Shown: positions 40,562 to 57,378 of the stretch, piece by piece
Position numbering within the stretch: position 1 is the first letter of the stretch
How the letters are laid out: each line of letters opens with the position of its first letter
Assembly: GCF_014643835.1 (NCBI RefSeq)
Contig: NZ_BMKD01000003.1
Location: 124,001-188,000 of the forward strand
Reading direction: 5' to 3'
From: Mucilaginibacter rubeus
GTDB taxonomy: Bacteria > Bacteroidota > Bacteroidia > Sphingobacteriales > Sphingobacteriaceae
DNA: 64,000 nt
Made by a program: the position numbers and the translations under genes
Notes under the pieces: model-generated
What the model saw: only the letters and a program-made list of their open reading frames with translations
Told to the model about the DNA's origin: nothing
Database searches by the model: none

Positions 40562-40569
40562 TAAGCCAT

Positions 40570-41058: not shown

Positions 41059-41095
41059 GCATCATCATACATCTACCATATATAACCTAAGCAAA

Positions 41096-42058: not shown

Positions 42059-42089
42059 TCCATTTTAAAACCTATTTGCATCAACCAAC

Positions 42090-44453
42090 ATGAAAAATAT
42101 ATTAAGCTTCGTTTTTTTAACCTGTATAGTAATTGCGGCCCGGGCGCAATCGCCGGTATCGCTTGGCAAAACAGTGGTAACGCTACCCAAAGCTTTTGAA
42201 AAACCTGATGAGCGTACCAGCATTTACAATACCGACGACCGTACTTCCCTGCCATGGATCGTATTTTCGGACAGGGCCGAAAATTATACATATACCTCGC
42301 CGGGCGGAACGCTGGTAATGAAAAAAATAAGTTTCATGGAGCCTTTTTATGTAAGTGAACAAAAAAACGGGTTTATAAAACTAATTAAGTACCAGGCCGG
42401 CATGGTACAAGGTAAAAAGCTTACCAATAAAAAAGGCTCGCAAAGTTACGGATGGATCAGCATTTCAAAGGTGTTGCCCTGGCAGTCGGCTTTTACCAGC
42501 ACAAATGGTTATCCCGAAAAATATATCACCATTATAAGTGGTGCCGGTCCGCTCACTATGCCCGATTATTATTATGACAAAACTGATTCCGCTTACATTT
42601 TTGCCGGGCCCGATCAAAGCCAGAAAAAAACCAAAGTGGCCCTGCACAATGTAGTTTATGTATACAAAAAATCTGACGACGGAAAAAAAGTATTGGTAGG
42701 GTCCGATCCGCAGTTGATTGCCGATAATGCAGCTGGCAGTGTTTATGGCTGGATAGCCGCCGACGCCGTTCATAGCTGGGGCGATAGGCTATATATCGGG
42801 TCGGCAAGGGAAAACCAGCCGTTGATCAATGATTCTATTGCAAGGTATATCAACAGTTCCCTGAAAACCAATAATAGCAAGGGAGGTACGGGCTATTTTG
42901 CTTTTGATCCCTTACTGGCCGATAATGCTCCCTTGTTATTGAGCATGCCTGTAAGCTCATCTGCTTCGGGTAATCTTAGCCTCGGCTTCGCAACCGATGT
43001 TTATGATAAAAGCCATAACAGTGTGCTTAATATCAAAGGCGGGCATTTAGCATATAAGGATTATCTCAAGATCCGCAGCAATGTTCACCACGTTAACATT
43101 GTGTTTGTGGTTGATGGCGGCAGCCCTATGCGCAATTATTTTTCGGGTATTACCAGCACTATTCAATCATTTGAAGATATTTTTGATGCGCATGCCAGGG
43201 GTAACCAGGTTAGATATGGGGCTGTAGTTTACCGTAACGCGTCCGGCTGTCAAACCGGGGGCATCCAGTCAACCCCGCTTAACGCCGATTATCGTAACCT
43301 GGTAAAATACCTCGAATCACAGTCAACAGTAACAGGTAACTGTGCCCCGGTGATAAGTTCCCAACCTGTTTTTGACGGTATCCGCACGGGCTTAAGCCTT
43401 TTTGGCAATCATCCCGACGAAACCAACCTGGTCATCCTGATTGGTGCCACCGGTGCTTTAGATCGTAATTCGGTAGGGGTTAATACGGTGGCCAGTCAGA
43501 TAGCGGCCGCCAACGCCCGCTTGTTAGCTATCCAGGTATTTAGCGATTACAACCCTATCTACAATGATTTTGTAATCCAGGCAAGACAAATTGTATCACA
43601 ATCTGCGGTAAAGCTGGCCGATTATAAAAAACAGCGCATGGTGAATGGAGAAGGCCTTACCAACGTGCAGCAATTCAATACATCACTGTCTGATTCGGTT
43701 TCCTTTTACCTCGATTATCCCAAAAAGAGCCTGATCCAGGGCGCTGTGGTATTTCCGCCCAAGAGAGTAGTAAAATCAAACCAGGCCATGAGTTTGGCAG
43801 TTGAACGCCTGATGCGCGAAACAGATTATGATATCCGTAACCAGATCCATACGCTCGACAGCGCATTCAGGCTTACCGGGCGCGAAAACCGTTATGTACA
43901 GCCGCTGGTTATGCAGCAGCAGGGGCAGCCATCAACCGATTTGGGAAACAATATGCCGCATAACGCTTTCAAATATTACCTCAGCGCCGAAGCACCCAGG
44001 AACCTGGTAAATGAAAGCAAGGGGCAGCTGCAATACCTGCTGATATTGAACGAGCAGGATTATAAGCAGCTGACAGATCTGCTGTCGCTCATGATAGGCG
44101 AAAACCTGCAGCGGGACGCGTCCGATTACCGCTCAAAATTGGTTGATAACTACGTTGATATCGCTGCCAAGCATTTAGGACTTAACTTATCTGGCGGTGA
44201 TATTAAAGACATGACCCTGGCCGATTATTTTCTGCGGGTTACCAGTTTGCCCTTACCCGGCAAAAAAGATTTCTATAATAAAAAGGTGAATGATCTTAAA
44301 CACAACGATGATATGCCGCAGGCGCAGTTTGAGGCATATATCCACTATTTGATCCATAGCAGTGATGTTATTAAACAGGCTGCTATTACCAACCAACACT
44401 TTACGTCAAACGGCAAAACCTATTATTATATAACCCAGGCTAACCTGCAATAG
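42090..44453 (+). CDS. tssR: T6SS membrane-complex protein TssR with vWA-like domain
   Basis: This 787-residue exported protein is the largest part of the Bacteroidota T6SS membrane complex. A signal peptide (ILSFVFLTCIVIAARA, then QSPV) is followed by a beta-rich region. A von Willebrand A-like domain at about residues 335-520 begins VNIVFVVDGGSPMRNYFSG. The metal-site-like motif DGGSPM departs from the classical DxSxS. A helical C-terminal part follows. tssH begins three bases after its stop. Confidence 0.88.
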   Translation: MKNILSFVFLTCIVIAARAQSPVSLGKTVVTLPKAFEKPDERTSIYNTDDRTSLPWIVFSDRAENYTYTSPGGTLVMKKISFMEPFYVSEQKNGFIKLIKYQAGMVQGKKLTNKKGSQSYGWISISKVLPWQSAFTSTNGYPEKYITIISGAGPLTMPDYYYDKTDSAYIFAGPDQSQKKTKVALHNVVYVYKKSDDGKKVLVGSDPQLIADNAAGSVYGWIAADAVHSWGDRLYIGSARENQPLINDSIARYINSSLKTNNSKGGTGYFAFDPLLADNAPLLLSMPVSSSASGNLSLGFATDVYDKSHNSVLNIKGGHLAYKDYLKIRSNVHHVNIVFVVDGGSPMRNYFSGITSTIQSFEDIFDAHARGNQVRYGAVVYRNASGCQTGGIQSTPLNADYRNLVKYLESQSTVTGNCAPVISSQPVFDGIRTGLSLFGNHPDETNLVILIGATGALDRNSVGVNTVASQIAAANARLLAIQVFSDYNPIYNDFVIQARQIVSQSAVKLADYKKQRMVNGEGLTNVQQFNTSLSDSVSFYLDYPKKSLIQGAVVFPPKRVVKSNQAMSLAVERLMRETDYDIRNQIHTLDSAFRLTGRENRYVQPLVMQQQGQPSTDLGNNMPHNAFKYYLSAEAPRNLVNESKGQLQYLLILNEQDYKQLTDLLSLMIGENLQRDASDYRSKLVDNYVDIAAKHLGLNLSGGDIKDMTLADYFLRVTSLPLPGKKDFYNKKVNDLKHNDDMPQAQFEAYIHYLIHSSDVIKQAAITNQHFTSNGKTYYYITQANLQ

Positions 44454-44456
44454 CAT

Positions 44457-46934
44457 ATGAATATAGTTAATTTAAGCGAGTCGGTGAAAACGGCGGTGCG
44501 GGTAGCGCAGTCATTAGCCAAAGAATATCACCATAAGGAATTCGGTCCGGCGCACCTTTTAAAAGGCTTGATGCACCAGGAAGTGGGGTTGAAGAACCTG
44601 CTTCAATCCATCGGGAAGGACACGGCTTATATAAGCGATTGGGCCGAAGTACGCATTGAAGATTATTCGGCCGCGTTAACCGTGCCCGACGAAATGTTAG
44701 GTAACAGCCAGGTAAAGCAGGTATTTGAAGAAGCCGATAATGTGCGCATAAAATTAGGCCAGGATTTGATTACGCCCGTTTGTGTGTTGATTGCGTTAAT
44801 AAAGCCCAATGTGGGTTTTGATGCTAACCAGCTAAAATCTTTCCCGGTAAAAGAACGCGAGTTGCTGGATATTTATTTGAGTAATGAGGATGTTAACCAT
44901 GCGGTAAATCCCTCTGCGCAGGCCACAAACGGCAGCGATGTACCCAAACAAACAACAGCATTACTCAAATACTGTGTAGACCGCACAAGCCTGGCCAAAC
45001 AGGGTAAGGTAGATCCCATCATAGGCCGGGAGCGTGAAACACGGATGGTGATGGAGATCCTGAGCCGGCGCACCAAGCCCAATGTAATGATCACCGGCGA
45101 TGCGGGCGTTGGCAAAACAGCCCTGGTTGACGGGTTCGCGCTTAGCATTGTAAACGGACAGGTACCGGCATCGCTTAAGAATGTACAGCTTTTTGAACTT
45201 GATCTGGGTTCATTGATCGCGGGGGCATCTTACAAAGGAGAAATTGAAGACAGGTTAAAAAACATCCTGCGCGAGATAAAGCAGTTTGAAAAAGCTATTC
45301 TGTTTATTGATGAGATCCATACACTGCTTGATAATAAAGGGCCGATAGGCGGCGGTGTTGGCAACCTGCTGAAACCGGAACTTGCCCGCGGCGAAATAAC
45401 GGTGATTGGTGCCACTACCATCGACGAATACCGCAAAGTGATTGAGCCCGAACAGGCATTTAGCCGCCGGTTTGAGGTGCTGCAGGTAAATGAGCCCGAT
45501 ACGCCTACAGCTATTAAAATGCTTAAAAAACTGGTGCCCCAATATGAGGAGCACCACAACTTAAAGATAGACGATAATACTGCCGAAGAGTGCGTTAGAC
45601 TGGCGCAGCGGTATATGAAAGACCGTCGCCTGCCCGACTCTGCCTTCGACCTGCTCGACCGTACCATGGCTGCTATCCGTTTAATGAACGATACCACCGA
45701 TACTGCCCTTTCCGAACTCCGCACCGAACTGAACGAATTAAAAGCACTGAATGATGCGGGTGATTTGATCGGAGCGTACAAATGGCTTTACACCGTGTAT
45801 CGCAATAAAATAAGCGCGGTGTTGTTAGGGCAGCTGGAAGATGAAACCCAGGTTGATACTTTTGAAACGCCTGATGAATACATCGCTTACTTTGAACGCA
45901 ATTTGAGCCGGCTTGAGGAATTGGCTCAAAATAAAACCGAGGTAGTAGATAAACATGATATTGCCGCTATTATCTCCTATAAAACAGGCATTCCCTTAGG
46001 CAAGATCCAGGCACAAGAGAAAGAAAGGCTTTTAGGCATGGAAGGCTTCCTGAAAAAACGGGTTGTTGGGCAGGACCAGGCGTTGAAAGCCGTTTCTGAT
46101 GCCATACTCGAATCGCGGAGCGGACTGAACAAAAAAGGGCAGCCCATCGGCTCATTCTTTTTGCTTGGCCCAACAGGCACCGGTAAAACGGAGCTGGCCA
46201 AATCAATAGCCGAGTTTTTATTTAATGACGAAAAAGCGATGATCCGCTTTGATATGTCGGAGTTTAAGGAGGAGCATTCGGCCGCATTGCTGTATGGCGC
46301 GCCGCCGGGCTATGTGGGGTATGAAGAGGGCGGCTTGCTCGTAAACAAAATAAGGCAGCAACCTTATTCGGTTGTGCTGTTTGATGAAATTGAAAAGGCA
46401 CACCCATCGGTATTTGATATCTTTTTACAGATCCTGGATGAAGGGCATATGCACGACAGGCTGGGCAAGCAAGGCGATTTTTCAAACGCGCTGGTGCTAT
46501 TTACCTCAAACCTTGGCAGCGAGTGGGTATCTGAGCAAATTAGCCGGGGGCATATGCCTACATCAAACCAATTGATGGAAGTGATGGCCAATAAGTTCAG
46601 GCCGGAGTTTTTGGCGCGGTTATCAGAAATTGTACCCTTTGCACCTATACATGAAGAAAATGTAGTACGCATCTTTGAGATCCAGCTCAAAAGCCTTATA
46701 CAGGCGCTTGAAAAAATGGGCATAAACATGCAGTTAAGTGCCGAAGCCAAAAATATGCTGGCTTTAAGCGGTTTTACACCCAAATATGGTGCACGGCAGC
46801 TATCGGCGGTGATCCGTAACCAATTGCGCAGGCCAATATCACGCTATATTATTTCGGGCGAACTGAAAAAAGGAAATACTATCGCCATAGATAAAAAAAG
46901 TGATGATACTGAATTATTGTGGAGCATTAGTTAA
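44457..46934 (+). CDS. tssH: T6SS sheath-disassembly ATPase TssH (ClpV)
   Basis: This is an 825-residue AAA+ disaggregase of the ClpB/ClpV class. It recycles contracted TssB-TssC sheath. A Clp N-domain (residues ~1-150) precedes two ATPase domains with Walker A motifs GDAGVGKTALVDG (~213) and GPTGTGKTELAKS (~571). Walker B is ILFIDEIHTLL, and VVLFDEIEKAHPSVF lies in the second domain. The middle coiled-coil is short, as in ClpV rather than ClpB. It ends the tssQOPRH run; tssB follows after 95 bases. Confidence 0.94.
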   Translation: MNIVNLSESVKTAVRVAQSLAKEYHHKEFGPAHLLKGLMHQEVGLKNLLQSIGKDTAYISDWAEVRIEDYSAALTVPDEMLGNSQVKQVFEEADNVRIKLGQDLITPVCVLIALIKPNVGFDANQLKSFPVKERELLDIYLSNEDVNHAVNPSAQATNGSDVPKQTTALLKYCVDRTSLAKQGKVDPIIGRERETRMVMEILSRRTKPNVMITGDAGVGKTALVDGFALSIVNGQVPASLKNVQLFELDLGSLIAGASYKGEIEDRLKNILREIKQFEKAILFIDEIHTLLDNKGPIGGGVGNLLKPELARGEITVIGATTIDEYRKVIEPEQAFSRRFEVLQVNEPDTPTAIKMLKKLVPQYEEHHNLKIDDNTAEECVRLAQRYMKDRRLPDSAFDLLDRTMAAIRLMNDTTDTALSELRTELNELKALNDAGDLIGAYKWLYTVYRNKISAVLLGQLEDETQVDTFETPDEYIAYFERNLSRLEELAQNKTEVVDKHDIAAIISYKTGIPLGKIQAQEKERLLGMEGFLKKRVVGQDQALKAVSDAILESRSGLNKKGQPIGSFFLLGPTGTGKTELAKSIAEFLFNDEKAMIRFDMSEFKEEHSAALLYGAPPGYVGYEEGGLLVNKIRQQPYSVVLFDEIEKAHPSVFDIFLQILDEGHMHDRLGKQGDFSNALVLFTSNLGSEWVSEQISRGHMPTSNQLMEVMANKFRPEFLARLSEIVPFAPIHEENVVRIFEIQLKSLIQALEKMGINMQLSAEAKNMLALSGFTPKYGARQLSAVIRNQLRRPISRYIISGELKKGNTIAIDKKSDDTELLWSIS

Positions 46935-47029
46935 GTAATTTAACTGAAATACATACTGTTAAAAACAATTTTATAGTTATTGCATTATAACATAAACACT
47001 TTCATACTTATCATTTATTAAATAAAGCT

Positions 47030-47470
47030 ATGTTTAATTACGAAATAGGGGGAAACGAAACAAAAGTTGATTCCTCAGAAGCATTTGGTGAGATAGCTCC
47101 CAATAAAACTTTGTTTATTCAAAAATTAACTGATAATGAGCCGCTGAGACCTGAGAAGGTTGAGGGACTTAAAAATGTTGAAGAGGTTTTTGCTCATTAC
47201 AAGCCAAAAGTAAGTGTTGAGCTTGAAAGAGAAAACGGATCAAATGTTACCGAAACGCTGCACTTTAACAATCTTGGCGATTTTGCCCCCAAAAACCTGG
47301 TACAACAAAGTAAATACCTGCATAAACTTAATATTCAGCGCGAGATGTACCTCAATATCATGAAGCAGCTGAAAACCAACAAAACGCTGAAGTCAACCCT
47401 TGATAACGCCGAAACCAAACAGGCCTTTATTGAGGCGTTAAAAAATATAGTAACCGAGCTTGACCAATAA
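47030..47470 (+). CDS. tssB: T6SS sheath protein TssB
   Basis: This 146-residue small sheath subunit pairs with TssC to form the contractile tube cover. The C-terminal helix and the LHFNNLGDFAPKNLVQQSKYL segment match TssB/VipA of subtype iii. tssC follows after 32 bases, and equimolar expression is expected. The gene may have its own promoter in the 95-base AT-rich gap after tssH. Confidence 0.9.
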   Translation: MFNYEIGGNETKVDSSEAFGEIAPNKTLFIQKLTDNEPLRPEKVEGLKNVEEVFAHYKPKVSVELERENGSNVTETLHFNNLGDFAPKNLVQQSKYLHKLNIQREMYLNIMKQLKTNKTLKSTLDNAETKQAFIEALKNIVTELDQ

Positions 47471-47502
47471 TTAGCTAATCCTAAACATTTAACAACACGA
47501 TC

Positions 47503-48885
47503 ATGGCAACACCAAACGAGCAGATCCTGAATGAAAATTCAACAGACCAGGCTCTTAAAATAAAAGAAAGAAGCGGCGCGGCACCTCTATCAACCAGTTT
47601 AGATAAACTATCAAAAGTTGGTGGTTTTGATTTGCTGGAAGCTACTATTGATGGCCTTCAAAACCTGAACCCCGAACGCAAAGCCCGTAAACAGATCTTT
47701 TTAACTGATGATGAGAAGAAAGGGGAGCGCGAAGAACTTAAGCTGAAGCTTAATCAATGGATAGAAGCTTTGGAAAGCGGCGAATCAGTTAGCGATACTA
47801 TTCAGAAAAGCGCCGAAAAACTGCAAAGCGTTGAAGAAAACCTGAACAAAAATTTACTCAATGTATTGGAAAGCACCCGCGAGCTGGAACAGGCTTACCG
47901 TACAGTGCATTTGTTTTATAAAAACACCGAACAGGATAAGCTGAAGAATGTGGTATTAATGAATGCCACGATCGATCAGTTGAAAGAGCTTGATAACCCA
48001 CGCTTTATTGAATATGCTGCAAATGAACTCAAGCAAAATTATGACAGGCTGGATCTTCGTCAAAATTATTCAATCCTGGTTGTACCCGGCTACCTTGGCT
48101 CAAACAAGGTAGTTGAACGCTGGTCAAAAATAGCCTATGATAATAAAGTAATGCTGGTGACCGATTTTGCGGATCTTGAACAACCGGATGATGTGATAGA
48201 CCTGTTTACATCAGCCAATTTAACCGGTGGCGATGCCTTTAAATCAAACACCATCATGACCTGTAACTGGCTGGTAGGCCGCGGCAAAGTTGCCGAAGCG
48301 GGTGAAGAGGATGACCTGTATATCCCGGGCTCGGCAGCATTGGCCGGTAAAATGTATTATACGCTGATGTCGCAGGTTACCGCCGGTAAAAAACACGGAG
48401 CGGTTAACGAGGTGGATGGTGTACGCTTTGACCTTAAAAAGAGCGAGATCTCGCACCTGGAGCGCATTGGCCTGGTACCCATGGTGAATGAGTATGGCAA
48501 GGTAATGGCATTCTCGGCCAAAACTTTGTTTAACGGCGATAATATCGGTTTGCAAACCTATTCGGTAGTGAGGGTATTTGATTATATCACCAAAGTATTA
48601 TTCGACTTTTTGAACCGCCGAGCTTTTGAAAACTGGACTTCAAAAACAGAGCAGGACCTGCGCTCGCAAATTGTGAAGTTTTTGGATAACATCCAGGGGC
48701 CCGACAGGCTTATCGAACGCTTTAAAATAATCAGGTTTGAGCGCGATGAACAGCAAAAGGACCGCATTCACCTTGATATTAATATCACGCCATATTTTCC
48801 CGCTAAAAGCTTTGTGGTAAAGCTTGACGGGCAAAAAGGTGAGGATGCAAGCCCAACCTGGAACAGCGAATATAAACAGCAGTAA
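47503..48885 (+). CDS. tssC: T6SS sheath protein TssC
   Basis: This is a 460-residue large sheath subunit. Key stretches are NPRFIEYAANELKQNYDRLD, SILVVPGYLGSNKVVERWSK and LRSQIVKFLDNIQGPDRLI, together with the C-terminal NITPYFPAKSFVVKLDG, where TssC contributes strands to the TssB interface. Length is typical for Bacteroidota TssC. A stable hairpin follows its stop. Confidence 0.93.
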   Translation: MATPNEQILNENSTDQALKIKERSGAAPLSTSLDKLSKVGGFDLLEATIDGLQNLNPERKARKQIFLTDDEKKGEREELKLKLNQWIEALESGESVSDTIQKSAEKLQSVEENLNKNLLNVLESTRELEQAYRTVHLFYKNTEQDKLKNVVLMNATIDQLKELDNPRFIEYAANELKQNYDRLDLRQNYSILVVPGYLGSNKVVERWSKIAYDNKVMLVTDFADLEQPDDVIDLFTSANLTGGDAFKSNTIMTCNWLVGRGKVAEAGEEDDLYIPGSAALAGKMYYTLMSQVTAGKKHGAVNEVDGVRFDLKKSEISHLERIGLVPMVNEYGKVMAFSAKTLFNGDNIGLQTYSVVRVFDYITKVLFDFLNRRAFENWTSKTEQDLRSQIVKFLDNIQGPDRLIERFKIIRFERDEQQKDRIHLDINITPYFPAKSFVVKLDGQKGEDASPTWNSEYKQQ

Positions 48886-48938
48886 TATCGCGGTACACAA
48901 CGTTGTGAAGTGGTAATGAGTCCCTTTTAAAATAAGGA

Positions 48939-48997
48939 AGCACCTACTGGAGCGATATCGGATATGTGCAAAACAATATATTGGCTCCGTAGGTGCC
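48939..48997 (+). terminator. long hairpin after tssC
   Basis: GCACCTACTGGAGC (48940-48953) pairs with GGCTCCGTAGGTGC (48983-48996), interrupted by one bulge, with a 29-base loop. No long T-run follows directly, so partial read-through or mRNA end protection is as likely as full termination. Confidence 0.65.
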
Positions 48998-49121
48998 TCT
49001 TGTTAGGAGGCGGGTTTTAAAAGCGATATTCAACCGTTAAACCAGCGCTGTGTGCATTTTAGGTTAATTTAACCGAAGGCCTAACTTTATTTATTGTTAA
49101 ATATGGTTTATGTTTGCATTG

Positions 49122-49682
49122 ATGAGGCAGCTATTGATCATTAATGCAGATATAGATAAAACACCAACCACAGCGGCATTGATCAATGCTTATAAAGACG
49201 GGGCCCAGGCCGCCGAAGCTGTAGTAAAAGAGATAGCCATCGCCGATCTTAAATTTAATCCCAACAAGCAATTCACGCTAAGCAATAACGAGCCCGAACC
49301 CGACCTGGTGCAAGCTGTAAACGCGATAAAATGGGCATCGCATGTGGTTATATTTTGCCCGGTTTATAAAGATTCGATCAACTCAAAAATTAAAGGTTTT
49401 TTTGATCGCGTTTTTATGCCCGACCAGGTTTTTATCAGCGGCTCGTCGATTAATTTCAATGGCCGGTCAGGACGTGTGGTTTCTATATTGGATGAAGCTG
49501 CCTGGCAGGACTGGCAGGTTGATATGAAGCCAACCTATCTGGCAGTAAAAAAACTAACCCTCGAAAAGCGCGGCATCAAGCCTGTGCATACCAGTACCAT
49601 CGGGCATCTCTATAACCTCGATAATGAGTACAGTAAAAAGTGGATTCAAAAATTATATTCTTTTGGGTTAAAACTTATTTAA
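49122..49682 (+). CDS. NAD(P)H-dependent flavodoxin-fold reductase
   Basis: This 186-residue protein counts from the ATG at 49122, whose MRQLLIINAD matches the family start. An upstream ATG at 49110 is possible. The flavodoxin-like fold of the NAD(P)H:quinone reductase family shows INADIDKTPTTAALINAYKD, EIAIADLKFNP and KIKGFFDRVFMPDQVF. It should use FMN or FAD. Its place between tssC and hcp is unexpected; it could be a passenger gene or cargo-related, and there is no secretion signal. It follows the tssC hairpin. Confidence 0.82.
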   Translation: MRQLLIINADIDKTPTTAALINAYKDGAQAAEAVVKEIAIADLKFNPNKQFTLSNNEPEPDLVQAVNAIKWASHVVIFCPVYKDSINSKIKGFFDRVFMPDQVFISGSSINFNGRSGRVVSILDEAAWQDWQVDMKPTYLAVKKLTLEKRGIKPVHTSTIGHLYNLDNEYSKKWIQKLYSFGLKLI

Positions 49683-49789
49683 ATAAATATTTAATATTTT
49701 CTCAAAACAATAAATTAATTACATTGTAGTTATTAAAGTAATGCGCAAAGCATCTACTTTAAATTATTAACCTCTTAAAATTTATCATT

Positions 49790-50188
49790 ATGGCTTTCAA
49801 AGCAAGATTAAATTTTTCGGGCAAGGACTACGATGTGCTCACTTGCTCCTATGCATTAAACCGCGATGTAGACTCAAAAGGACGCCCGTCCTCAGGTATT
49901 TACGGCGGTACTATCGATATCGAGATCGAGTCGACTGAAGACACCTCCATTATCGAATCAATGGTTAACAACCAGTACAAACCGATTGCCGGAACTTTGC
50001 TGATCAAAAAATCTGAGGAAGACGCTAAGATGAAAGAGTTGTCTTTTGAAGATGGCTACATCGTGAAGTATTCTGAAGGTATCGACATTACAGGCGCAAC
50101 TCCCATGAGCTTGAAGTTTGTAATCTCGGCCCGCAAGTTGAAACTGGGAAGCGCCGAGCACGTGAACGACTGGCCAGGTAAAAACTAA
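49790..50188 (+). CDS. tssD: Hcp-like tube protein TssD, copy 1
   Basis: This is a 132-residue protein forming the inner hexameric tube of the T6SS. It matches the Bacteroidota TssD type, with MAFKARL at the start, RDVDSKGRPSSG and EDTSIIESMVNNQYKP in the middle, and FVISARKLKLGSAEHVNDWP at the end. A second copy with about three-quarters identity lies 74 bases downstream. Two tubes could carry different cargo or simply raise dosage. The 100-base upstream gap is AT-rich; no certain promoter was placed. Confidence 0.92.
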   Translation: MAFKARLNFSGKDYDVLTCSYALNRDVDSKGRPSSGIYGGTIDIEIESTEDTSIIESMVNNQYKPIAGTLLIKKSEEDAKMKELSFEDGYIVKYSEGIDITGATPMSLKFVISARKLKLGSAEHVNDWPGKN

Positions 50189-50262
50189 GCCCGGCCGATT
50201 TTGTTATCTGTTTGTGCCGAAGGGGCACTTAATTTATTTATCTACTTAAAACTTTATTGATC

Positions 50263-50655
50263 ATGGCTTTCAAAGCAAGAATTAGTTTAGGATCGAAAGA
50301 ATTCGACGTGCTGCAGTGCAGCTATTCATTAAACAGGGACGTTGATTCAAAAGGCCGTCCGTCATCAGGTGTATATGGTGGTACCATCCAGGTTGAGGTT
50401 GAATCAACCGAAGATACTTCGGTTATCGAATCGATGGTGAACAGCCAGTACAAGCCAATTCATGGCACTATCACCTTCAAAAAATCTGAAGAAGATGCCA
50501 AAATGAAGGAGCTTAATTTTGAGGATGGTTACATCATTCAATATAACGAGGGGATATCGATTATCGGTAACAACCCAATGTCGTTAAGCTTTGTGATATC
50601 GGCGCGTAAGCTGAAAATAGGCAACGCCGAGCACGAAAACGACTGGCCTAAATAA
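50263..50655 (+). CDS. tssD: Hcp-like tube protein TssD, copy 2
   Basis: This 130-residue close paralogue of copy 1 starts with MAFKARISL at the ATG at 50263. A TTG six bases upstream is in frame but is not preferred, since copy 1 starts at the equivalent ATG. Differences cluster at strand edges and near the tube lumen-facing turns (GTITFKKS against GTLLIKKS; SIIGNNP against DITGATP), which could alter cargo choice. Two terminator-like hairpins follow before the effector gene. Confidence 0.92.
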   Translation: MAFKARISLGSKEFDVLQCSYSLNRDVDSKGRPSSGVYGGTIQVEVESTEDTSVIESMVNSQYKPIHGTITFKKSEEDAKMKELNFEDGYIIQYNEGISIIGNNPMSLSFVISARKLKIGNAEHENDWPK

Positions 50656-50660
50656 TATCT

Positions 50661-50687
50661 CAGTACAATTGATTTGTACTGTCTTTT
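50661..50687 (+). terminator. intrinsic terminator after hcp copy 2
   Basis: CAGTACAA (50661-50668) and TTGTACTG (50674-50681) form an eight-pair stem with a five-base loop, followed by TCTTTT. It starts five bases past the stop codon. Confidence 0.8.
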
Positions 50688-50695
50688 AAAAAGAT

Positions 50696-50735
50696 ACGGA
50701 GGAGATAGTAACATATTTTCCTCCGTGTTCTTTTT
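50696..50735 (+). terminator. second hairpin before the effector operon
   Basis: ACGGAGGA (50696-50703) pairs with TCCTCCGT (50719-50726), and GTTCTTTTT follows. Together with the first hairpin it should sharply reduce read-through from hcp into the lysozyme-like gene at 50768. Confidence 0.75.
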
Positions 50736-50767
50736 ACAGCTTTTGTTTAGGTTCAGTTATAAACCTT

Positions 50768-51667
50768 ATGAAAAGAAAGAAGAGAATAATAAACCCAGCC
50801 TTACCCACTACAAAGAAAAAGGTGAAAAAATCGTCGGTTCCAACCCCCATGGAATACGTGCAGCTTTTTAATACCTGTGTTATTAAAAAGGAAAAAATCG
50901 CTGCTGTCGATAAGATCATCGATGAAAAGGTAACCGTAAACCGCCCCCGTTACGAAAGTATTTCAAACCTGGTACGCCTTGGTACTAATGCGCCGTCGGC
51001 TGCCGGAAATAAAAATCTTTTCGCATCGGTCTACACTCCTTTTTTTGATCGTTATAACACTACACCGCTATCATTAAACCCAACGGCGGCTAATGCCAAA
51101 CCCGAAAGTGTTTTGGATATGATGACCAAACCGCAGATGACAACCGGCCTTTTGGGAGCTAATTTTTTTGACACCGGGAGGTTTACCCCAAACGATCCGT
51201 TCGCGTTTATGAACCTTTTTGGCGGCGGCGGAGCTATCCCCTGGTATTTTATTGCCTGCGTACATTATATGGAGTGTTCGTTCAGTTTCAAAAAACACCT
51301 GCACAACGGCGATCCGCTTACCGGTTATACGGTACAGGTGCCCGCCAATCGCCCAAAGGTGGGTCATGGCCCTCCGTTTACTTTTGAGGAGAGCGCTGTT
51401 GATGCTATTAAACTGATGAAGTATGATAAGGTAACCAATTGGAGCCTGCCGTTTATTTTGCAAAAGCTGGAGGGATATAACGGTTTCGGTTATAATAAAA
51501 AGGGCATTCACACGCCTTACCTCTGGAGTTTTTCGAACCAGTATGTCAAGGGCAAATATGTCAAAGACGGTGTTTTTGATGCCGAGGCGGTATCCCAGCA
51601 AATGGGCGCGGCAGTTATCCTTAAACGGATGGAAGACAGGGCACTGATTAGTATTCCCAGAAATTAA
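50768..51667 (+). CDS. lysozyme-like candidate T6SS effector
   Basis: This is a 299-residue protein with no signal peptide and a Lys-rich N-terminus, as expected for cargo moved by a secretion tube. The C-terminal ~150 residues carry IPWYFIACVHYMECSFSF, then KHLHNGDPLTGYTV, LQKLEGYNGFGY and PYLWSFSNQYVKGKYV. These stretches resemble a lysozyme-like family of putative peptidoglycan hydrolases, with Glu169 in HYMECSF the candidate acid. The N-terminal ~140 residues match nothing known to me and may be a loading domain. The gene lies three bases before a lipoprotein gene and upstream of vgrG. An antibacterial muramidase is inference. Confidence 0.75.
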   Translation: MKRKKRIINPALPTTKKKVKKSSVPTPMEYVQLFNTCVIKKEKIAAVDKIIDEKVTVNRPRYESISNLVRLGTNAPSAAGNKNLFASVYTPFFDRYNTTPLSLNPTAANAKPESVLDMMTKPQMTTGLLGANFFDTGRFTPNDPFAFMNLFGGGGAIPWYFIACVHYMECSFSFKKHLHNGDPLTGYTVQVPANRPKVGHGPPFTFEESAVDAIKLMKYDKVTNWSLPFILQKLEGYNGFGYNKKGIHTPYLWSFSNQYVKGKYVKDGVFDAEAVSQQMGAAVILKRMEDRALISIPRN

Positions 51668-51670
51668 CCA

Positions 51671-52282
51671 ATGAAAAGGATCGTTAAATATATGGTATTA
51701 TTACTGCTTGCTACCGGGTTGGCAGGTTCGGCCGTGGGCTGCAGTAGTAACCCTAAAGCCCCGGTTGCTGATACCGTCAAAACCATAGCTAAGTCGGCCT
51801 CCCGAACTGTACATAAATCGGCCCTTACCGACGAGCAGTTGTTCCGAGCCTGCCTGAAACAGTTTAAAGCCGCTGCCCTGCAAAGAAATAAAAAGCAACT
51901 GGCCGGCATGTTTTACTTCCCGCTGCAAACAACACCCCAATGGTCGAACGAAGATTTACGATCTGCTAAGATTAACCCTGCTGAAGGGCTGGTTAGCGGA
52001 GCAGAATATCCACAGTATGAGCCTACTATATTGAATGCTGACGCGCTTCGTCTTATACCCAAAAGCACAGAAGACGATCTGTCGGAAATTGACGCCGCTA
52101 CCGACGAAAACTATTATAAAGTTATTGCAAAAGTTACAGATAAAGGTAGTAAGCTTTACGAGTTGCAGCAACAATATGAGCAAAAAAATGGCAGGGAAAC
52201 ATCGTACGGGTTTGTTTTTGGCAAAGTTAACGGGCAATATAAAATTATAAGTTACTACAGCCCATGGCCTGTTAAAGGTTAA
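51671..52282 (+). CDS. lipoprotein, candidate immunity partner
   Basis: This 203-residue protein has a lipoprotein signal ending in the lipobox GSAVGC (Cys near residue 24). It starts three bases after the lysozyme-like gene, which points to translational coupling. The mature part shows a helix then strands (LFRACLKQFKAAALQRNKK, YGFVFGKVNGQYKIISYY) and could be NTF2-like. A periplasmic lipid-anchored protein is where a wall-hydrolase immunity protein should act, but no sequence family confirms it. An accessory structural role in the T6SS envelope is the main alternative. Confidence 0.7.
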   Translation: MKRIVKYMVLLLLATGLAGSAVGCSSNPKAPVADTVKTIAKSASRTVHKSALTDEQLFRACLKQFKAAALQRNKKQLAGMFYFPLQTTPQWSNEDLRSAKINPAEGLVSGAEYPQYEPTILNADALRLIPKSTEDDLSEIDAATDENYYKVIAKVTDKGSKLYELQQQYEQKNGRETSYGFVFGKVNGQYKIISYYSPWPVKG

Positions 52283-52301
52283 TGGATTTTATAGCCGAAT
52301 T

Positions 52302-54173
52302 ATGGAAAAGAAACTAAAAGTAGATATCAATATTGAAGGTACCCAGATCACCCATTTCTCTACCTTTAACCTTGACCAGCGTTTTAATGAGCACCATACT
52401 TTTCAGCTCAGGTTTAACCATGATATGGTTGAAGAGTACAACGCTGTTACGCTCGAAAACTCAAAGGACTTTATTGGTAAAAACATTACCGTGCAATTTG
52501 GCACAGCCGATAGCGGCGAAAATAAATTTAGCGGTATTGTTACCAAGGTAGAGCTTTCGCAAAGCCATGGGTTTCATGGCGATATCCTGGTGAGCGGCTT
52601 TAGTCCGACCATCCTGATTGACCGGGGCCCCGATCTCGGCTCGTACCTTAACAAAAGCCTGAGCAGCATTATTCAGTTAGCTACGCAGGATGCACCTGCA
52701 AATGATCTGAACCTCAATATCAAACCAACCAATACTTCGCCTATTGATTATATCATTCAATATCGTGAAAGCGATTTTGAGTTTATCAACCGTCTTTCGG
52801 CCGAGTATTACGAATGGTTTTATTACGATGGTGCTAAACTAAATTTCGGTAAGCCTGATAAGCTGGAGGAGGTTGCTCTAATTTACGGGCGTGATCTGCA
52901 CAGCCTGCAATATGCAATGCAGATAGCGCCTTTAAAGCATAACAAGTTTGCTTACAACCCCAGGCAGGATGAACTGCTTTCGTCGGAGCCGCAAGGCTCT
53001 TCGGGCAGTACGCCGGATCTTTCGCATGCCATCAGCGCGTCAAACAAAGTTTTCAGCAAAGTTTATAATGAACCATTGGCTGTTAGGGTAAATAACAAAA
53101 AAGAAATAGATGATTTTGTTAATAACCAGCAAAAAGCGCTGATATCCGAATTGGTTACCATTGTAGGCAATGGCGACAACCCCACGGTGGGCCTGGGCAA
53201 AATACTTAATGTAAGCATGAGTGTAAGGGGCACAGGTGCTTTTGAATTGCAGGATTTTGGCAAGTTCCTGGTTACGGCGGTTTATCACCAGATCGACGGT
53301 GTTGGCCATTACCAAAATACGTTTGAAGGCGTTACTGCCGATACGGAGCGTATCCCGGTTGCTGAAGCCGAAAAACCCAACCCGGATATGCAGCTGGCCG
53401 ATGTTACCGACAACGCCGACCCGGATGGGCATGGCCGCGTTAAAGTAAAATTTAAATGGCAATGTACCGCGAATGATGTTACCGAGTGGCTTAGAGTAGT
53501 TTCTCCTGACGCAGGCAGCTCGGATAAAGTAAGCAAGAATCGCGGGTTTGTTTTTATCCCCGAAGTTGGCGACCAGGTGCTGGTAGCATTTGAGGAGGGT
53601 AATATTGCCCGCCCGGTTATTATTGGCAGCATGTTTAGTGGTAAAACAGGCACAGGCGGCAGTCAAACCAATAAAACCAAAGCGCTTACTACCCGAAGCG
53701 GCAACACCGTGATACTGGACGATAGCAATGGCAGCATTAACGTTAAAGATCCCAGCGGTAACGTGGTAACCCTTAATGGCGACGGTACGGTAACCATTTA
53801 TGCGCCAAACACCTTAACGCTGGTATCAAAAGATATTAACATTAATGCGGGCAATAGCATTAACATAACATCATCGCCGGCCAAAGAAGGCGGGGGTGAC
53901 GGTGTTATCAATGTTACAGCCAAAAAATCGATAGCGGTAGCGGCGCAGGATGAAGGTATTACTACAAATGCGAAAAAAGATATTGCCTTTACCAGCGAAA
54001 CCGAAAGCATCAAACTTTCTGCATCAGCCAAAGACATCACTTTTGATGCGGCGGCCGGCAAACTTTCATCAAGCAGCAAATCGGCCGAGATCAGCTCGAC
54101 CGACAAAATGCATCTCAATGGCGGCAGTCTTGCGCATATTATAGCAGGCGATGTTGAAATTAACCAATCATGA
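52302..54173 (+). CDS. vgrG: T6SS spike protein TssI (VgrG)
   Basis: This is a 623-residue trimeric spike protein, homologous to phage gp27/gp5. The gp27-like base spans residues 1 to ~370, the OB fold about 375-470 (DPDGHGRVKVKFKWQ, RGFVFIPEVGDQVLVAFEEG) and the beta-helical needle about 470-610 (SGNTVILDDSNGSINVKDPS). No extra effector domain is fused at the C-terminus, so cargo must be bound through adaptors or the PAAR-like tip. The next gene overlaps its stop by four bases. Confidence 0.95.
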   Translation: MEKKLKVDINIEGTQITHFSTFNLDQRFNEHHTFQLRFNHDMVEEYNAVTLENSKDFIGKNITVQFGTADSGENKFSGIVTKVELSQSHGFHGDILVSGFSPTILIDRGPDLGSYLNKSLSSIIQLATQDAPANDLNLNIKPTNTSPIDYIIQYRESDFEFINRLSAEYYEWFYYDGAKLNFGKPDKLEEVALIYGRDLHSLQYAMQIAPLKHNKFAYNPRQDELLSSEPQGSSGSTPDLSHAISASNKVFSKVYNEPLAVRVNNKKEIDDFVNNQQKALISELVTIVGNGDNPTVGLGKILNVSMSVRGTGAFELQDFGKFLVTAVYHQIDGVGHYQNTFEGVTADTERIPVAEAEKPNPDMQLADVTDNADPDGHGRVKVKFKWQCTANDVTEWLRVVSPDAGSSDKVSKNRGFVFIPEVGDQVLVAFEEGNIARPVIIGSMFSGKTGTGGSQTNKTKALTTRSGNTVILDDSNGSINVKDPSGNVVTLNGDGTVTIYAPNTLTLVSKDININAGNSINITSSPAKEGGGDGVINVTAKKSIAVAAQDEGITTNAKKDIAFTSETESIKLSASAKDITFDAAAGKLSSSSKSAEISSTDKMHLNGGSLAHIIAGDVEINQS

Positions 54174-55051
54174 TCATGAATATATTACCGGTAAATACAG
54201 CTCAAAGTTCATGGTACCAGCTTAGCTCATCCAACCGTACTATAATCGGCACAAAAGTACTTGAGTTTGTGCAAGACAGGTGGATTGAAATAAAACTCAT
54301 TAGCCATGACGATAAGCAACGGGTTTATGAATATACCCTGCTTGATCAAAATATGGATGGTTCGGCGCTGATCCATGAATGGGCAGCAGATATGGAATGG
54401 TTCCAGTCGCCGGTACAGATCATAACAGATCTGGAAGGGAAATTTATCGGCATCAATAATTTTAATAGTATCGCTAATTGCTGGCAGCAGGGCTTCCGGT
54501 CAAAAATCGCCAAAAAATATCGTCAGCAGGATGGTATCGATGTAATGCTGTCCGAAACAGACAAATTGCTGCAGGATCCTAAACGCTTTCTGCAATCATT
54601 TATGGGGTACAGCCATTACCGGTGCTTTTTTCAACCGTTTTACAGGGAATGGCAAGCCAATGAAAGCTCTTCCCTGATACTGAAAGGTTTTTTCGGCACA
54701 ATTGACCTGCCGCTCGTCATCTACAGTTTTACCGAACAACATGGCAACACCGTAACCATAATTAACGAAGCCGAGGTTGACGAAGAAAGGTTTGAAAGAC
54801 CTGTTTTAGTGAGGATGCTAAAAGACCTTACAAATACCTATAACCTGAAGGTTGACCTGCAAACCGAGATGGAAGAGATTTACAAATTTGAAAACAACAT
54901 ACTGCAGGAGGCCGATTTGTTTTTGCAATTACATGTGCCCTCATTTTATACCGTTGTAACGGCACATCAATGCAGGCGGATTGAACAGCATGAGCTTCCG
55001 AAGGAACGCGTTGATAAGCACGAGCTGAGCAACAGTATACTGCATGTATAA
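54170..55051 (+). CDS. candidate T6SS adaptor between VgrG and the PAAR-like tip
   Basis: This 293-residue cytoplasmic protein has no recognised domain. The start at 54170 overlaps the vgrG stop as ATGA; a second ATG at 54176 is equally possible. Position between VgrG and a PAAR-like protein is that usually held by effector chaperones or adaptors (as DUF4123 or DcrB-like proteins in Proteobacteria). Visible features are mixed alpha/beta content and the aromatic run YSHYRCFFQPFYREW. Function is inferred from location only. Confidence 0.55.
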   Translation: MIMNILPVNTAQSSWYQLSSSNRTIIGTKVLEFVQDRWIEIKLISHDDKQRVYEYTLLDQNMDGSALIHEWAADMEWFQSPVQIITDLEGKFIGINNFNSIANCWQQGFRSKIAKKYRQQDGIDVMLSETDKLLQDPKRFLQSFMGYSHYRCFFQPFYREWQANESSSLILKGFFGTIDLPLVIYSFTEQHGNTVTIINEAEVDEERFERPVLVRMLKDLTNTYNLKVDLQTEMEEIYKFENNILQEADLFLQLHVPSFYTVVTAHQCRRIEQHELPKERVDKHELSNSILHV

Positions 55052-55087: not shown

Positions 55088-56458
55088 ATGTCAAAAAAAT
55101 ATATTCCAAACAATAGCTGCCTTAAGTGCGATAAAGGGTCGGCTCCTGTGCGGTTAAAGGTAACGCATCATAATAACACAAAAATTTATGGTGAGTTCCT
55201 GGCCAGTGAGGCCGATATGGTGCCGGGTGAAAATATTTTGCCTATGGGCAGGTGTTCGGTAACGGGTGGCAGCTGCAAATTTGACCCAATTTACTGGGAC
55301 AAGACCAATAAAGGTGTTAAGGTTAACGGCTACAAATTATTATTTGAAGATGCGAACCTGTTGTGCAAACAAGGCGGCAAAATAAGTGTTGACTTTAATG
55401 CGCCAAGCGGTATGAGCACAGCCGGGGCGCTTGTTACGGGTGCCGGTGCCGGAACGTTCAACTATGGTTCGTACACCAACACCCTTGATATATTGCAGCG
55501 CGGTACCATTTATGATGTTGAAAACGGCAAGATAAGCCTGGTACGGAGCAACAGCGAAAGTGATTACCGCAGGCACGGTAATTACGGGGAGATGAAGGAC
55601 AACGTTTATCATCGGCAGGAAGGTTTTCGCGACGTAAGAAGCGAGCATCCTGTAATTGATATTGATAAACCTACGGCTTCGGGCATTGACGGGGCTTATG
55701 CCAAAGATAATGGGTATAAAATTACAGACGGTAAATACAATACAGCATCAATACAAAATACGACAACCGGCCGCGAGTTAAGTGAGCGATGGACGCGAAA
55801 TCACATCGACAATAACGGGGCGATAAACCCGGCAGACGAAGCAGGGGTTAGACTGGCAAATACAGATGGCAGCCTGAACCGCGAGGTGATCAGGGTTAAG
55901 CCCGACGGAACCATGCAGTCAGAAACTATAAACTCCAACGGTTTTAAAGCTACCCGCGGGCAAAGTGAGGCCCTGGAAATAAAAACCAGCAGGGCAGGCA
56001 ATTTTATGAATGGTGTAAGGTCGTCCATGCTCAATTCAAAACCTCTTACAGCCTTGTCCGAATCTAATTTTTCGCAGGCGGTACGTAATAGCAGAATTGC
56101 CACTGGCGCAAATGACGGCCTGTTTAAGGCAAGCCAGGCAATTGCACGTTCTCCGGCTTTAAGTGTGGCTGGCAAAGTTGCCGGCCGGGGGCTTATAGTT
56201 GTTGGTATCGCCCTTGATGCAGTAAGTATCTATTCGGCGTATGAAGAAGAGGGCGGTTTTGGCAAAAAAACAAAAGAAGCGGTAGGCGGTGCTGCCGGTG
56301 GCCTTGCCGGCGGTATAGCCGGCGCCGAAATAGGTGCAATGATAGGTACTGCTATATGCCCCGGGGTTGGTACGGTGGTTGGTGGTATTGTTGGCGGGGT
56401 TATCGGAGGCCTGGCCGGAAGCGGCATTGGTAAATCAATTGCAGGATGGTTCTCATAA
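55088..56458 (+). CDS. DUF4280 PAAR-like protein with glycine-zipper C-terminal tail
   Basis: This is a 456-residue protein. Residues ~5-115 form a DUF4280 domain (CLKCDKGSAPVRLKV, MGRCSVTGGSCKFDP), a PAAR-like spike tip with conserved Cys and probable metal binding. The middle ~270 residues contain Asn/Asp-rich and Ser-rich stretches without a recognised fold. Residues ~365-456 hold a hydrophobic helix (GRGLIVVGIALDAVSIYSAY) and then a long glycine zipper (GGAAGGLAGGIAGAEIGAM, VVGGIVGGVIGGLAGSGIG). Such tails insert in membranes. I see no nuclease motif. It may be a membrane-targeting effector or a carrier whose toxin part is cryptic. The DUF1911 gene follows after 18 bases. Confidence 0.75.
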   Translation: MSKKYIPNNSCLKCDKGSAPVRLKVTHHNNTKIYGEFLASEADMVPGENILPMGRCSVTGGSCKFDPIYWDKTNKGVKVNGYKLLFEDANLLCKQGGKISVDFNAPSGMSTAGALVTGAGAGTFNYGSYTNTLDILQRGTIYDVENGKISLVRSNSESDYRRHGNYGEMKDNVYHRQEGFRDVRSEHPVIDIDKPTASGIDGAYAKDNGYKITDGKYNTASIQNTTTGRELSERWTRNHIDNNGAINPADEAGVRLANTDGSLNREVIRVKPDGTMQSETINSNGFKATRGQSEALEIKTSRAGNFMNGVRSSMLNSKPLTALSESNFSQAVRNSRIATGANDGLFKASQAIARSPALSVAGKVAGRGLIVVGIALDAVSIYSAYEEEGGFGKKTKEAVGGAAGGLAGGIAGAEIGAMIGTAICPGVGTVVGGIVGGVIGGLAGSGIGKSIAGWFS

Positions 56459-56476
56459 ATTTAAACAGCTTAAAAA

Positions 56477-57253
56477 ATGGGTTTTTTTGATAAATTATTT
56501 GGCGGAGGTGGAACCACGGCAACACCCGAAACGCAGTTAAGAGCAGAATATAAAGACGTTGCTTTCTTTAAAAAAATGTTTGATAAGAAGCAGTCGATAA
56601 TAAAAATGTACCAGGAACAAAATGTCACCCTAAAACAGCAGGAAAAGTTTCGCCCGATAAACAACTGGGTGCTTGCTATGGAACATCTTGACCTGGTTTA
56701 TTTAAACTATTCTATCGGGAATGATATCAGCCTGTGTTATAATGAATATATAGCAGCTGCCGGATACTATGGCGAAGGCTGGGATGCCGACGCGTTTTAT
56801 GCCGATATGATTGATATGGTAGCCTTAGGCAGCTTACTGAATGTACCTGATGAGGTATACGAGCCGGTTATTAATTATATCCGCCAGTCGGATAGTGGTT
56901 CCAGTTACCCAACCTGGACACCGGATGCCTTATTATGGTATATCATCAACACCAAAAAGCCGGGGAGCGGCCCGCAGCCGGATACGCTTATCACCGAAGC
57001 TTACAGGGATATTTATGATTTAACAAAAATGCCTAAAGCCGATGCGGAGCGCGAAATGAAACTTTACCTCGACAAATGGTACAGGTTGCATAAAGACGAT
57101 TCATGGTATGAAAATCATAAAAAAGAAGGCTCATATAAAGGCTACTGGAGCTGGGAGGCCGGCGCGGTAACTAAGATATTGGGACTTGATGATAGCGGTT
57201 ACGCTAATCATCCAAATTATCCTTATGATATGGTGCACTGGTCGGCTTCGTAA
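56477..57253 (+). CDS. PoNi-type immunity protein (DUF1910/DUF1911)
   Basis: This 258-residue cytoplasmic protein resembles the DUF1910-DUF1911 pair. DUF1910-like sequence lies from residue ~25 (YKDVAFFKKMFDKKQSIIKM). The DUF1911 signature GYWSWEAGAVTKILGLDDS and HPNYPYDMVHW sits near the C-terminus. Such proteins are known as immunity proteins for PoNe DNase effectors of T6SS and other systems. Here the neighbour is a DUF4280 glycine-zipper protein instead. The N-terminal GFFDKLFGGGGTT looks like a flexible leader. Two hairpin terminators follow, closing the effector operon. Confidence 0.85.
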   Translation: MGFFDKLFGGGGTTATPETQLRAEYKDVAFFKKMFDKKQSIIKMYQEQNVTLKQQEKFRPINNWVLAMEHLDLVYLNYSIGNDISLCYNEYIAAAGYYGEGWDADAFYADMIDMVALGSLLNVPDEVYEPVINYIRQSDSGSSYPTWTPDALLWYIINTKKPGSGPQPDTLITEAYRDIYDLTKMPKADAEREMKLYLDKWYRLHKDDSWYENHKKEGSYKGYWSWEAGAVTKILGLDDSGYANHPNYPYDMVHWSAS

Positions 57254-57344: not shown

Positions 57345-57378
57345 CGCAAACGTTTCTGGGAACGTTTGCGCGGTTTTT
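57345..57378 (+). terminator. strong hairpin, second terminator
   Basis: CGCAAACGTT (57345-57354) and AACGTTTGCG (57361-57370) are exact complements, and GGTTTTTG follows. The pair of terminators isolates the T6SS operon from the pectin genes. Confidence 0.85.

What the first reader, a model, noticed from the sequence alone, without database searches (positions are those of the whole stretch)
55088..57253. PAAR-like glycine-zipper protein paired with a DNase-type (PoNi) immunity protein
DUF1910/DUF1911 proteins normally neutralise PoNe DNases, but the adjacent DUF4280 protein shows no nuclease motif and ends in a membrane helix plus a glycine zipper. Possibilities are a cryptic or new nuclease in the unassigned middle region, a membrane toxin countered by a DUF1911 protein, or loss of the original toxin.
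Basis: partly seen in the sequence, partly recalled or inferred. Interest (0 to 1): 0.8.

Follow-up and report, generated by a model that had tools for sequence, protein, structure and literature searches.

The report
DNase toxin with a membrane-type tail
This soil bacterium carries a spear-tip toxin that appears to cut the DNA of rival bacteria, together with its matching antidote gene; the toxin type was already known, but this version carries an unusual greasy, membrane-type tail behind the DNA-cutting part.

Summary
The key premise, 'no nuclease motif', is wrong. Residues ~160-283 of the PAAR-like protein are a divergent PoNe domain (PD-(D/E)xK DNase), the toxin class that DUF1910/DUF1911 (PoNi) proteins neutralise. 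A profile of this region finds one of 177,635 PDB sequences, VP14465, the PoNe crystallised with its PoNi (E 0.0037). It matches C-terminal PoNe domains by profile-profile comparison (98.2%, P 3e-14); the tail does not (0.2%). G167, E168, G199, D201, D214 and K216 are kept in 13 of 13 homologues. Not routine is the order of parts: PAAR-like tip, nuclease in the middle, conserved glycine-zipper tail last. Of 26 tail-less long DUF4280 proteins examined, 17 had a membrane-like segment, always before residue 220. The tail most likely helps the nuclease across the target's inner membrane, as Tde1's N-terminal zipper does; this is inference. A colicin-like pore domain, suggested by two searches, reached only 1.7% by profile-profile comparison. 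New variant of a known kind; modest interest.

The parts
37537..54173 (.). Type VI secretion locus of the Bacteroidota type that should deliver the effector: TssF-like (37537-39384 -), gp25/TssE-like (39389-39823 -), two TssO-type genes, PKD-domain protein, TssR (42090-44453), ClpB/ClpV-type ATPase (44457-46934), TssB-like (47030-47470), TssC (47503-48885), two TssD/Hcp (49790-50188, 50257-50655), VgrG (52302-54173).
   Evidence: Pfam, (TssF and one of the two TssO genes below cut-off; gp25, TssB/VipA, TssR, TssC, TssD and the VgrG domains above); ATPase by NCBIfam, below its curated cut-offs.
54170..55051 (+). Adaptor/chaperone candidate, 293 aa, between VgrG and the effector.
   Evidence: No Pfam family above cut-off. 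Profile of 13 sequences (A7); best of 177,635 PDB sequences is 9jg8_A 'Bacteroides T6SS Adapter Protein C', only E 0.055. Suggestive.
55088..56458 (+). Effector gene, 456 aa: PAAR-like tip, PoNe nuclease, glycine-zipper tail.
55112..55393 (+). DUF4280 (PAAR-like) domain, aa 9-102.
   Evidence: PF14107, E 8e-13.
55565..55936 (+). PoNe PD-(D/E)xK nuclease domain, about aa 160-283; motif residues E168 (55589-55591), D201 (55688-55690), D214 (55727-55729), K216 (55733-55735).
   Evidence: Profile vs PDB, hhalign vs canonical PoNe, residues kept in 13 of 13, secondary structure of the models.
56123..56455 (+). C-terminal hydrophobic glycine-zipper tail, aa 346-456; proposed membrane/translocation module.
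   Evidence: GxxxG excess and hydropathy, 58-90% identity to P0001 in the 11 other aligned homologues; Pfam Gly-zipper_Omp matches 9 of 12 members, best E 3e-4, but the window's own tail only at E 2.
56477..57253 (+). PoNi immunity protein, 258 aa: PoNi_N aa 22-130, PoNi_C aa 149-252; short N-terminal prefix MGFFDKLFG; no hydrophobic segment.
   Evidence: (PDB 9waq_A, E 8e-12).
57345..57370 (+). Terminator-like hairpin downstream of the immunity gene (11 pairs, T-rich tail).
   Evidence: 4 such sites in the stretch against 3.0 (sd 1.8) in shuffles, so weak.

Best explanation
The two genes are an effector/immunity pair of the type VI secretion system whose locus lies just upstream. The DUF4280 domain sits on the VgrG tip. 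The middle domain (aa ~160-283) is a PoNe DNase that degrades the rival's DNA. The C-terminal glycine-zipper helices insert into the rival's inner membrane and help the nuclease into the cytoplasm, in the manner shown for the N-terminal zipper of Tde1. The PoNi protein binds the PoNe domain in the producer and its kin. Shown here by computation: the domain architecture, the PoNe/PoNi assignments, conservation of the core motif residues, linkage to the T6SS genes. Inferred from the families: tip position, DNase activity, immunity by direct binding. Inferred by analogy only: the role of the tail. The confidence given is for the PoNe/PoNi effector-immunity assignment; for the tail as a translocation aid it is about 0.55.
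For: PoNe: profile A2 finds 1 of 177,635 PDB sequences at E <= 10, VP14465 (9waq_B), E 0.0037; hhalign A2 vs four C-terminal PoNe domains (A5) 98.2%, P 3.3e-14 over 116 columns; A5 itself hits VP14465 at E 3e-18; tail control 0.2%. Of the published motif Kx3GExnGIDx2YxnYx3ExK: G167, E168, G199, D201, K216 in 13 of 13; the ExK glutamate is D in 13 of 13. D201 aligns with residue 45 of chain 9waq_B, which is D335, the residue whose mutation abolishes activity, if the chain is offset by 290; the same offset makes chain residue 106 the W396 of the PoNi/DNA interface, which aligns with W235 (weak second stretch; one search puts W235 on the PoNe tryptophan), kept in 13 of 13. Secondary structure of aa 160-299 follows VP14465's order a-b-b-b-a-a-b-b, with one strand very short. 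PoNi: both Pfam domains over cut-off; a PoNi gene directly downstream in 13 of 13 loci. Tail: conserved with two PoNe subtypes that are only 27-32% identical to each other; Tde1 precedent (passages read).
Against: No family search on single sequences calls the PoNe domain. Foldseek gives no match at E <= 0.001; the best for the domain model is a Holliday junction resolvase at E 0.1; VP14465 is not among the 50 rows shown, though that library ends in April 2026 and may not hold it. The first lysine of the PoNe motif is K in only 2 of 13 (one sequence has a gap there), Y204 in 11 of 13, Y210 in 7 of 13. The tail's role is untested: a DUF4280-PoNe protein without such a tail exists (L045), so PoNe delivery does not seem to require it, and the known zipper translocator is N-terminal, not C-terminal.
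Confidence: 0.85

Rival explanations
1. Bifunctional effector: the PoNe domain cuts DNA and the glycine-zipper tail also permeabilises the target membrane as a second toxic activity; PoNi covers only the nuclease.
For: The glycine-zipper C-terminus of EsxX is a membrane-depolarising toxin, and TelE's is described there as essential for its toxicity; the N-terminal part of Tde1 is itself toxic and not neutralised by its immunity protein. A profile search matched the tail to the pore-forming bacteriocin pyocin S5, residues 338-484, E 0.00094, and 2 of 12 members matched Pfam Colicin, best E 0.0045. The colinear hhalign score against colicin pore domains, 20, is above 59 of 60 shuffles of the tail and 60 of 60 of the colicin side.
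Against: That comparison still gives only 1.7% probability, P 0.03, and one tail shuffle scored higher, 25.4. No membrane immunity protein is evident: the three PoNi proteins tested have no hydrophobic segment and the genes beyond PoNi differ from locus to locus, read by eye.
Confidence: 0.25
2. The tail is a structural or chaperone-docking element used in the producer (loading on VgrG with the 293-aa adaptor) and plays no part in the target.
For: An adaptor-like gene lies between a VgrG-like gene and the effector in 11 of 13 loci by eye; in L068 it lies further upstream behind another gene, and L072 is cut by its contig end.
Against: Adaptor-like genes also accompany DUF4280 effectors without this tail (L045, L046; 16-18% identity to the window's in A7), so it is not tail-specific.
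Confidence: 0.2
3. Original toxin lost; PoNi is an orphan beside a structural tip protein.
For: Orphan PoNi genes seem to exist (L047; also suggested in PMC6688995).
Against: PoNe domain present, core residues intact in 13 of 13, dN/dS of the PoNe region 0.03-0.04 in the two measurable pairs with amino-acid differences.
Confidence: 0.02

Closest known systems
PoNe/PoNi (V12_14465/V12_14460 = VP14465/VP14460, Vibrio parahaemolyticus; PMC6688995, PMC13377157)
   Same: PoNe motif core (GE...G-I/L-D...[D/E]xK), predicted order of secondary structure, adjacent DUF1910/DUF1911 immunity gene, T6SS linkage. DUF4280-PoNe fusions were already reported in 2019, and that paper foresaw PoNe-like domains below its threshold next to PoNi genes.
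   Different: PoNe is internal, not C-terminal; D in place of the ExK glutamate in 13 of 13; a conserved glycine-zipper tail follows it; PAAR-like instead of FIX N-terminus.
Imm-PA2201 with Tox-REase-1 (PMC3482391, passages read)
   Same: DUF1910 + DUF1911 immunity proteins paired with a restriction-endonuclease-fold toxin, Bacteroidota included.
   Different: That survey also pairs these immunity proteins with Tox-AHH; I made no direct comparison with its Tox-REase-1 sequences.
Tde1 of Agrobacterium tumefaciens (Ntox15 DNase with glycine zipper; PMC10240207, passages read)
   Same: T6SS DNase fused to GxxxG repeats overlapping a TM-like segment.
   Different: Tde1's zipper is N-terminal (aa 12-51), its nuclease is Ntox15, and it is loaded through Tap1; here the zipper is C-terminal, the nuclease is PoNe and the protein carries its own PAAR-like domain.
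EsxX / TelE (LXG effectors with a C-terminal glycine zipper; PMC12744356 passages, PMC10434224 listing only)
   Same: C-terminal glycine zipper of an interbacterial effector.
   Different: There the zipper is the toxin, and EsxX's immunity proteins bind it or sit in the membrane; here a nuclease precedes it and the immunity protein is PoNi.
Pore-forming colicins / pyocin S5
   Same: Hydrophobic helical C-terminus; single-profile hits.
   Different: Only 1.7% by profile-profile comparison with eight colicin pore domains.

Membership tests
PoNe (Polymorphic Nuclease effector) | Sequence relationship to known PoNe domains | tested here: met
   control. Single-sequence search alone not significant (E 0.28 and 0.041).
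PoNe (Polymorphic Nuclease effector) | Motif Kx3GExnGIDx2YxnYx3ExK | tested here: inconclusive
   Met in the core: GE, G-x-D and the last lysine 13 of 13. Departures: E of ExK is D in 13 of 13 (allowed in PD-(D/E)xK), GID is GLD in 2 of 13, first K in 2 of 13, Y204 11 of 13, Y210 7 of 13.
PoNe (Polymorphic Nuclease effector) | PD-(D/E)xK fold | tested here: inconclusive
   Domain model mean pLDDT 68.8; the Foldseek list contains several PD-(D/E)xK enzymes (Hjc, splicing endonuclease, HincII, RecU) among unrelated proteins, none at E <= 0.001.
PoNe (Polymorphic Nuclease effector) | DUF1911 gene immediately downstream (1389 of 1546 in the original study) | tested here: met
   Window and 13 of 13 loci (Pfam for two of them, home-made PoNi profile for the rest).
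PoNe (Polymorphic Nuclease effector) | Mg2+-dependent DNase activity, abolished by Asp mutation | not testable with these tools
   -
PoNi | PF08928 + PF08929 over curated cut-offs | tested here: met
   closest solved structure VP14460, E 8e-12.
PoNi | Binds and neutralises the neighbouring toxin | not testable with these tools
   -
PAAR-like DUF4280 tip protein | PF14107 over cut-off, in a T6SS locus near VgrG | tested here: met
Glycine-zipper translocation module (Tde1 type) | Repeated GxxxG overlapping a TM-like segment | tested here: met
Glycine-zipper translocation module (Tde1 type) | N-terminal position in front of the nuclease | tested here: not met
   Zipper at aa 346-456, nuclease at ~160-283.
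Glycine-zipper translocation module (Tde1 type) | Zipper glycines needed for entry into target cells, not for secretion | not testable with these tools
   -
Colicin pore-forming domain | Profile homology to colicin pore domains | tested here: inconclusive
   Single-profile hits (E 0.00094 and 0.0045), but hhalign against eight colicin pore domains only 1.7%, P 0.03; above 59 of 60 tail shuffles. Not filed as a member.

The most novel reading that the evidence does not exclude
A toxin-in-the-middle T6SS effector whose C-terminal glycine zipper is a self-carried entry and/or pore module that works from behind the nuclease: the zipper stays in the target membrane and the nuclease domain, tethered between tip and zipper, is passed into the cytoplasm, possibly with membrane damage as a second blow that a single soluble immunity protein does not cover.
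Probability: 0.25. Interest if true: 0.6.

Novelty: new variant of a known kind. Interest (0 to 1): 0.35.

Why it matters
It removes a claimed paradox: the DUF1911 protein here guards against its usual partner, a PoNe nuclease that family searches miss because it is divergent. What remains is a natural test case for how T6SS nucleases cross the target's inner membrane: DUF4280 proteins of the same family of bacteria have the membrane-type segment near the front, at the very end behind the nuclease, or not at all.

Tried and rejected
Loss of the toxin: rejected on residue conservation and dN/dS. In the PoNe region the two window pairs are saturated at synonymous sites, so only L063/L064 (0.031), L061/L062 (0.041) and L067/L070 (no amino-acid change) could be measured.

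Colicin-like pore domain: a profile hit to pyocin S5 led me to fetch seven colicin pore domains besides ColE1 from E. coli plasmids. Profile-profile comparison gave 1.7%. The score, 20, exceeded 59 of 60 column shuffles of the tail (one reached 25.4) and 60 of 60 of the colicin side. Homology is not established; a weak resemblance remains.

Cassette swap with constant flanks: in L071 the PoNe region and PoNi are only 29% identical to L061 while DUF4280 is 96%, but the tail is 70% (DNA 64%, against 84% for DUF4280), so the exchange more likely took everything after DUF4280, tail included. I do not claim that the tail stayed in place.

Immunity prefix: PoNi proteins directly behind tail effectors start with an MGFFDKLFG-like stretch except in L071/L041; the 11 PoNi proteins outside their clade do not, and an orphan in L047 does. 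In a midpoint-rooted tree without printed supports the prefix-bearing proteins (20 of 35) fall in one clade that also holds L041, L071, a second L077 gene and the truncated L048 without it, so the prefix is inherited and no independent evidence.

Structure: the full-length model is poor (mean pLDDT 45.6); only aa ~160-299 is usable. Foldseek was not significant. Complexes were not predicted. A tblastn of the effector and of its tail in 'plasmids' found nothing.

Full report
What is there. The two ORFs are as reported: 55088-56458 and 56477-57253, both on the + strand, 18 bp apart. Pfam places DUF4280 at aa 9-102 of the first, and PoNi_N and PoNi_C on the second, all over the curated cut-offs. 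They close a Bacteroidota-type T6SS locus that contains TssR, TssO, TssC, two TssD and VgrG upstream. The nearest record found is Mucilaginibacter gossypii Gh-67, reported as 100% identical over the effector (rounded, at least two residues differ by eye); the window's own assembly is not held.

The nuclease. Pfam sees nothing at E <= 10 between aa 103 and 456 and NCBIfam nothing at E <= 1. A phmmer search of the whole protein gave VP14465, the PoNe DNase of Vibrio parahaemolyticus, as its best PDB match, though not significant (E 0.28; 0.041 with aa 145-301 alone). A profile of 11 homologues of this region finds VP14465 and nothing else among 177,635 PDB sequences at E <= 10 (E 0.0037). As an independent test I took four C-terminal PoNe domains that lie next to PoNi genes: two from genomes of the same family as the nearest relative, one Rhs protein of Pseudoalteromonas, one Campylobacter coli protein. 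Their profile hits VP14465 at E 3e-18. The window family matches them at 98.2% probability, P 3.3e-14, over 116 columns; the tail of the same protein scores 0.2%. The divergent subtype of L071/L041/L077 also matches (96.7%).

Residues. In 13 sequences (window, L061-L071, L077) G167, E168, G199, D201, D214, K216 and W235 are kept in 13 of 13. The ExK glutamate of the published motif is aspartate throughout, which PD-(D/E)xK allows. The first lysine of that motif is K in 2 of 13 (one gap), I200 is I in 11 and L in 2, Y204 is kept in 11 and Y210 in 7. D201 aligns with residue 45 of the VP14465 chain. With an offset of 290, which also makes chain residue 106 the W396 named in the paper, this is D335, whose mutation abolished toxicity and DNase activity. 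AlphaFold2 folds only aa ~160-299 of the full protein with any confidence; the order of elements agrees with that described for VP14465, one strand being very short. Foldseek lists several PD-(D/E)xK enzymes, among unrelated proteins, but nothing at E <= 0.001.

Conservation and neighbours. The one scan of genome contigs returned 13 loci, in records named Mucilaginibacter, Chitinophaga, Pedobacter, Flavobacterium, Zobellia, Flavihumibacter and an unnamed Bacteroidetes bacterium; L072 is cut by its contig end (the same stretch as L041) and L060 is the near-identical relative. In 13 of 13 a PoNi gene follows directly. A VgrG-like ORF is visible, by eye, in 11 of 13; the exceptions are L068 and L072. 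Genes beyond PoNi differ between loci, by eye. L066 and L077 carry two and L068 six PoNi genes in tandem (L077 is from a later search).

The tail. The last 111 residues hold 15 GxxxG (0 of 2000 shuffles reach this) and TM-like windows. It is 58-90% identical to the window's in the 11 homologues. Its position is unusual. One search recognised 31 DUF4280 proteins of at least 300 aa in 48 loci. The five with a tail match have all their hydrophobic segments after aa 354; of the 26 without it, 17 have such a segment, always within aa 46-217, and 9 have none. This is a selection and not de-duplicated: mostly long frames chosen from the list (DUF4280 in 63 of 341 genomes), plus earlier loci; one tail protein, L077, comes. 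Of the 38 loci fetched for DUF4280 gave no protein in this count, nor did L043 and L044, since my DUF4280 profile is narrow; several of the missed frames are over 1,000 aa, and I did not look at their ends. The tail itself is rare: 4 of 395 genomes of the phylum at E <= 1e-5, of which two (G001, G926) are this family.

How it works. From what is published on PoNe/PoNi (PMC6688995: abstract, passages and one section read; PMC13377157: abstract and two sections) the nuclease should degrade target DNA and PoNi should block it by binding the helical region that carries W235. PMC6688995 also says that DUF1911 genes can follow proteins in which PoNe was not detected, in part because of PoNe-like domains below its threshold; the present case fits that. 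A PoNi without hydrophobic segments fits a cytoplasmic target. The tail is best explained by analogy with Tde1, whose glycine zipper is needed to enter target cells but not for secretion (PMC10240207, passages). This is inference. Against it, L045 is a DUF4280-PoNe protein without such a tail. A pore-forming role is the main rival: the tail profile hit pyocin S5 at E 0.00094 and 2 of 12 members hit Pfam Colicin, but profile-profile comparison with eight colicin pore domains gave 1.7%, above most shuffled controls yet far from homology.

The adaptor. The 293-aa protein upstream has no Pfam family above cut-off; its profile's best PDB match is Bacteroides T6SS Adapter Protein C, at only E 0.055.

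Novelty. PoNe fused to DUF4280 and PoNi immunity are in print. I found no paper holding both 'DUF1911' and 'glycine zipper' or both 'DUF4280' and 'glycine zipper' in the open-access library searched; most subscription papers are outside it, and I could not see the supplementary lists of PMC6688995, which may name such proteins. So the arrangement nuclease-then-zipper in a PAAR-like effector may be undescribed, but it is a variant of a known kind.

Noticed in passing
L068 (Flavobacterium branchiophilum), 3103-8516: Six PoNi-type genes in tandem behind one tail-bearing PoNe effector: a poly-immunity array.
   Followed up: no
L047 (G232), 5562-6323 -: Apparently orphan PoNi with the same N-terminal prefix, beside genes that look like molybdenum-enzyme genes by eye, with no visible toxin.
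   Followed up: partly
window 56477-56506 and PoNi genes of related loci: Most PoNi proteins of this clade begin with a short MGFFDKLFG-like prefix that the 11 PoNi proteins outside the clade lack; purpose unknown.
   Followed up: partly
L044 (G211), 7701-9143 - with 5099-6568 -: A DUF4280-like protein (below cut-off) with a hydrophobic stretch inside it and an SsdA-type deaminase domain at its end lies one gene away from two tandem PoNi genes, so PoNi may sit near non-nuclease toxins as well.
   Followed up: no
L051 6015-6308 and L052 1458-4715: Other ORFs ending in a similar glycine zipper (brought in) are followed by ORFs that look membrane-bound by eye; possible true zipper toxins.
   Followed up: no
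window 50768-51667: 299-aa protein of unknown family beside the Hcp genes; similar ORFs lie in L039, L040, L042 and L044 by eye; no Pfam match.
   Followed up: no
L069 (Zobellia), 8233-9978: Right behind the pair lies a second, shorter DUF4280-like ORF (by eye) with its own PoNi gene.
   Followed up: no
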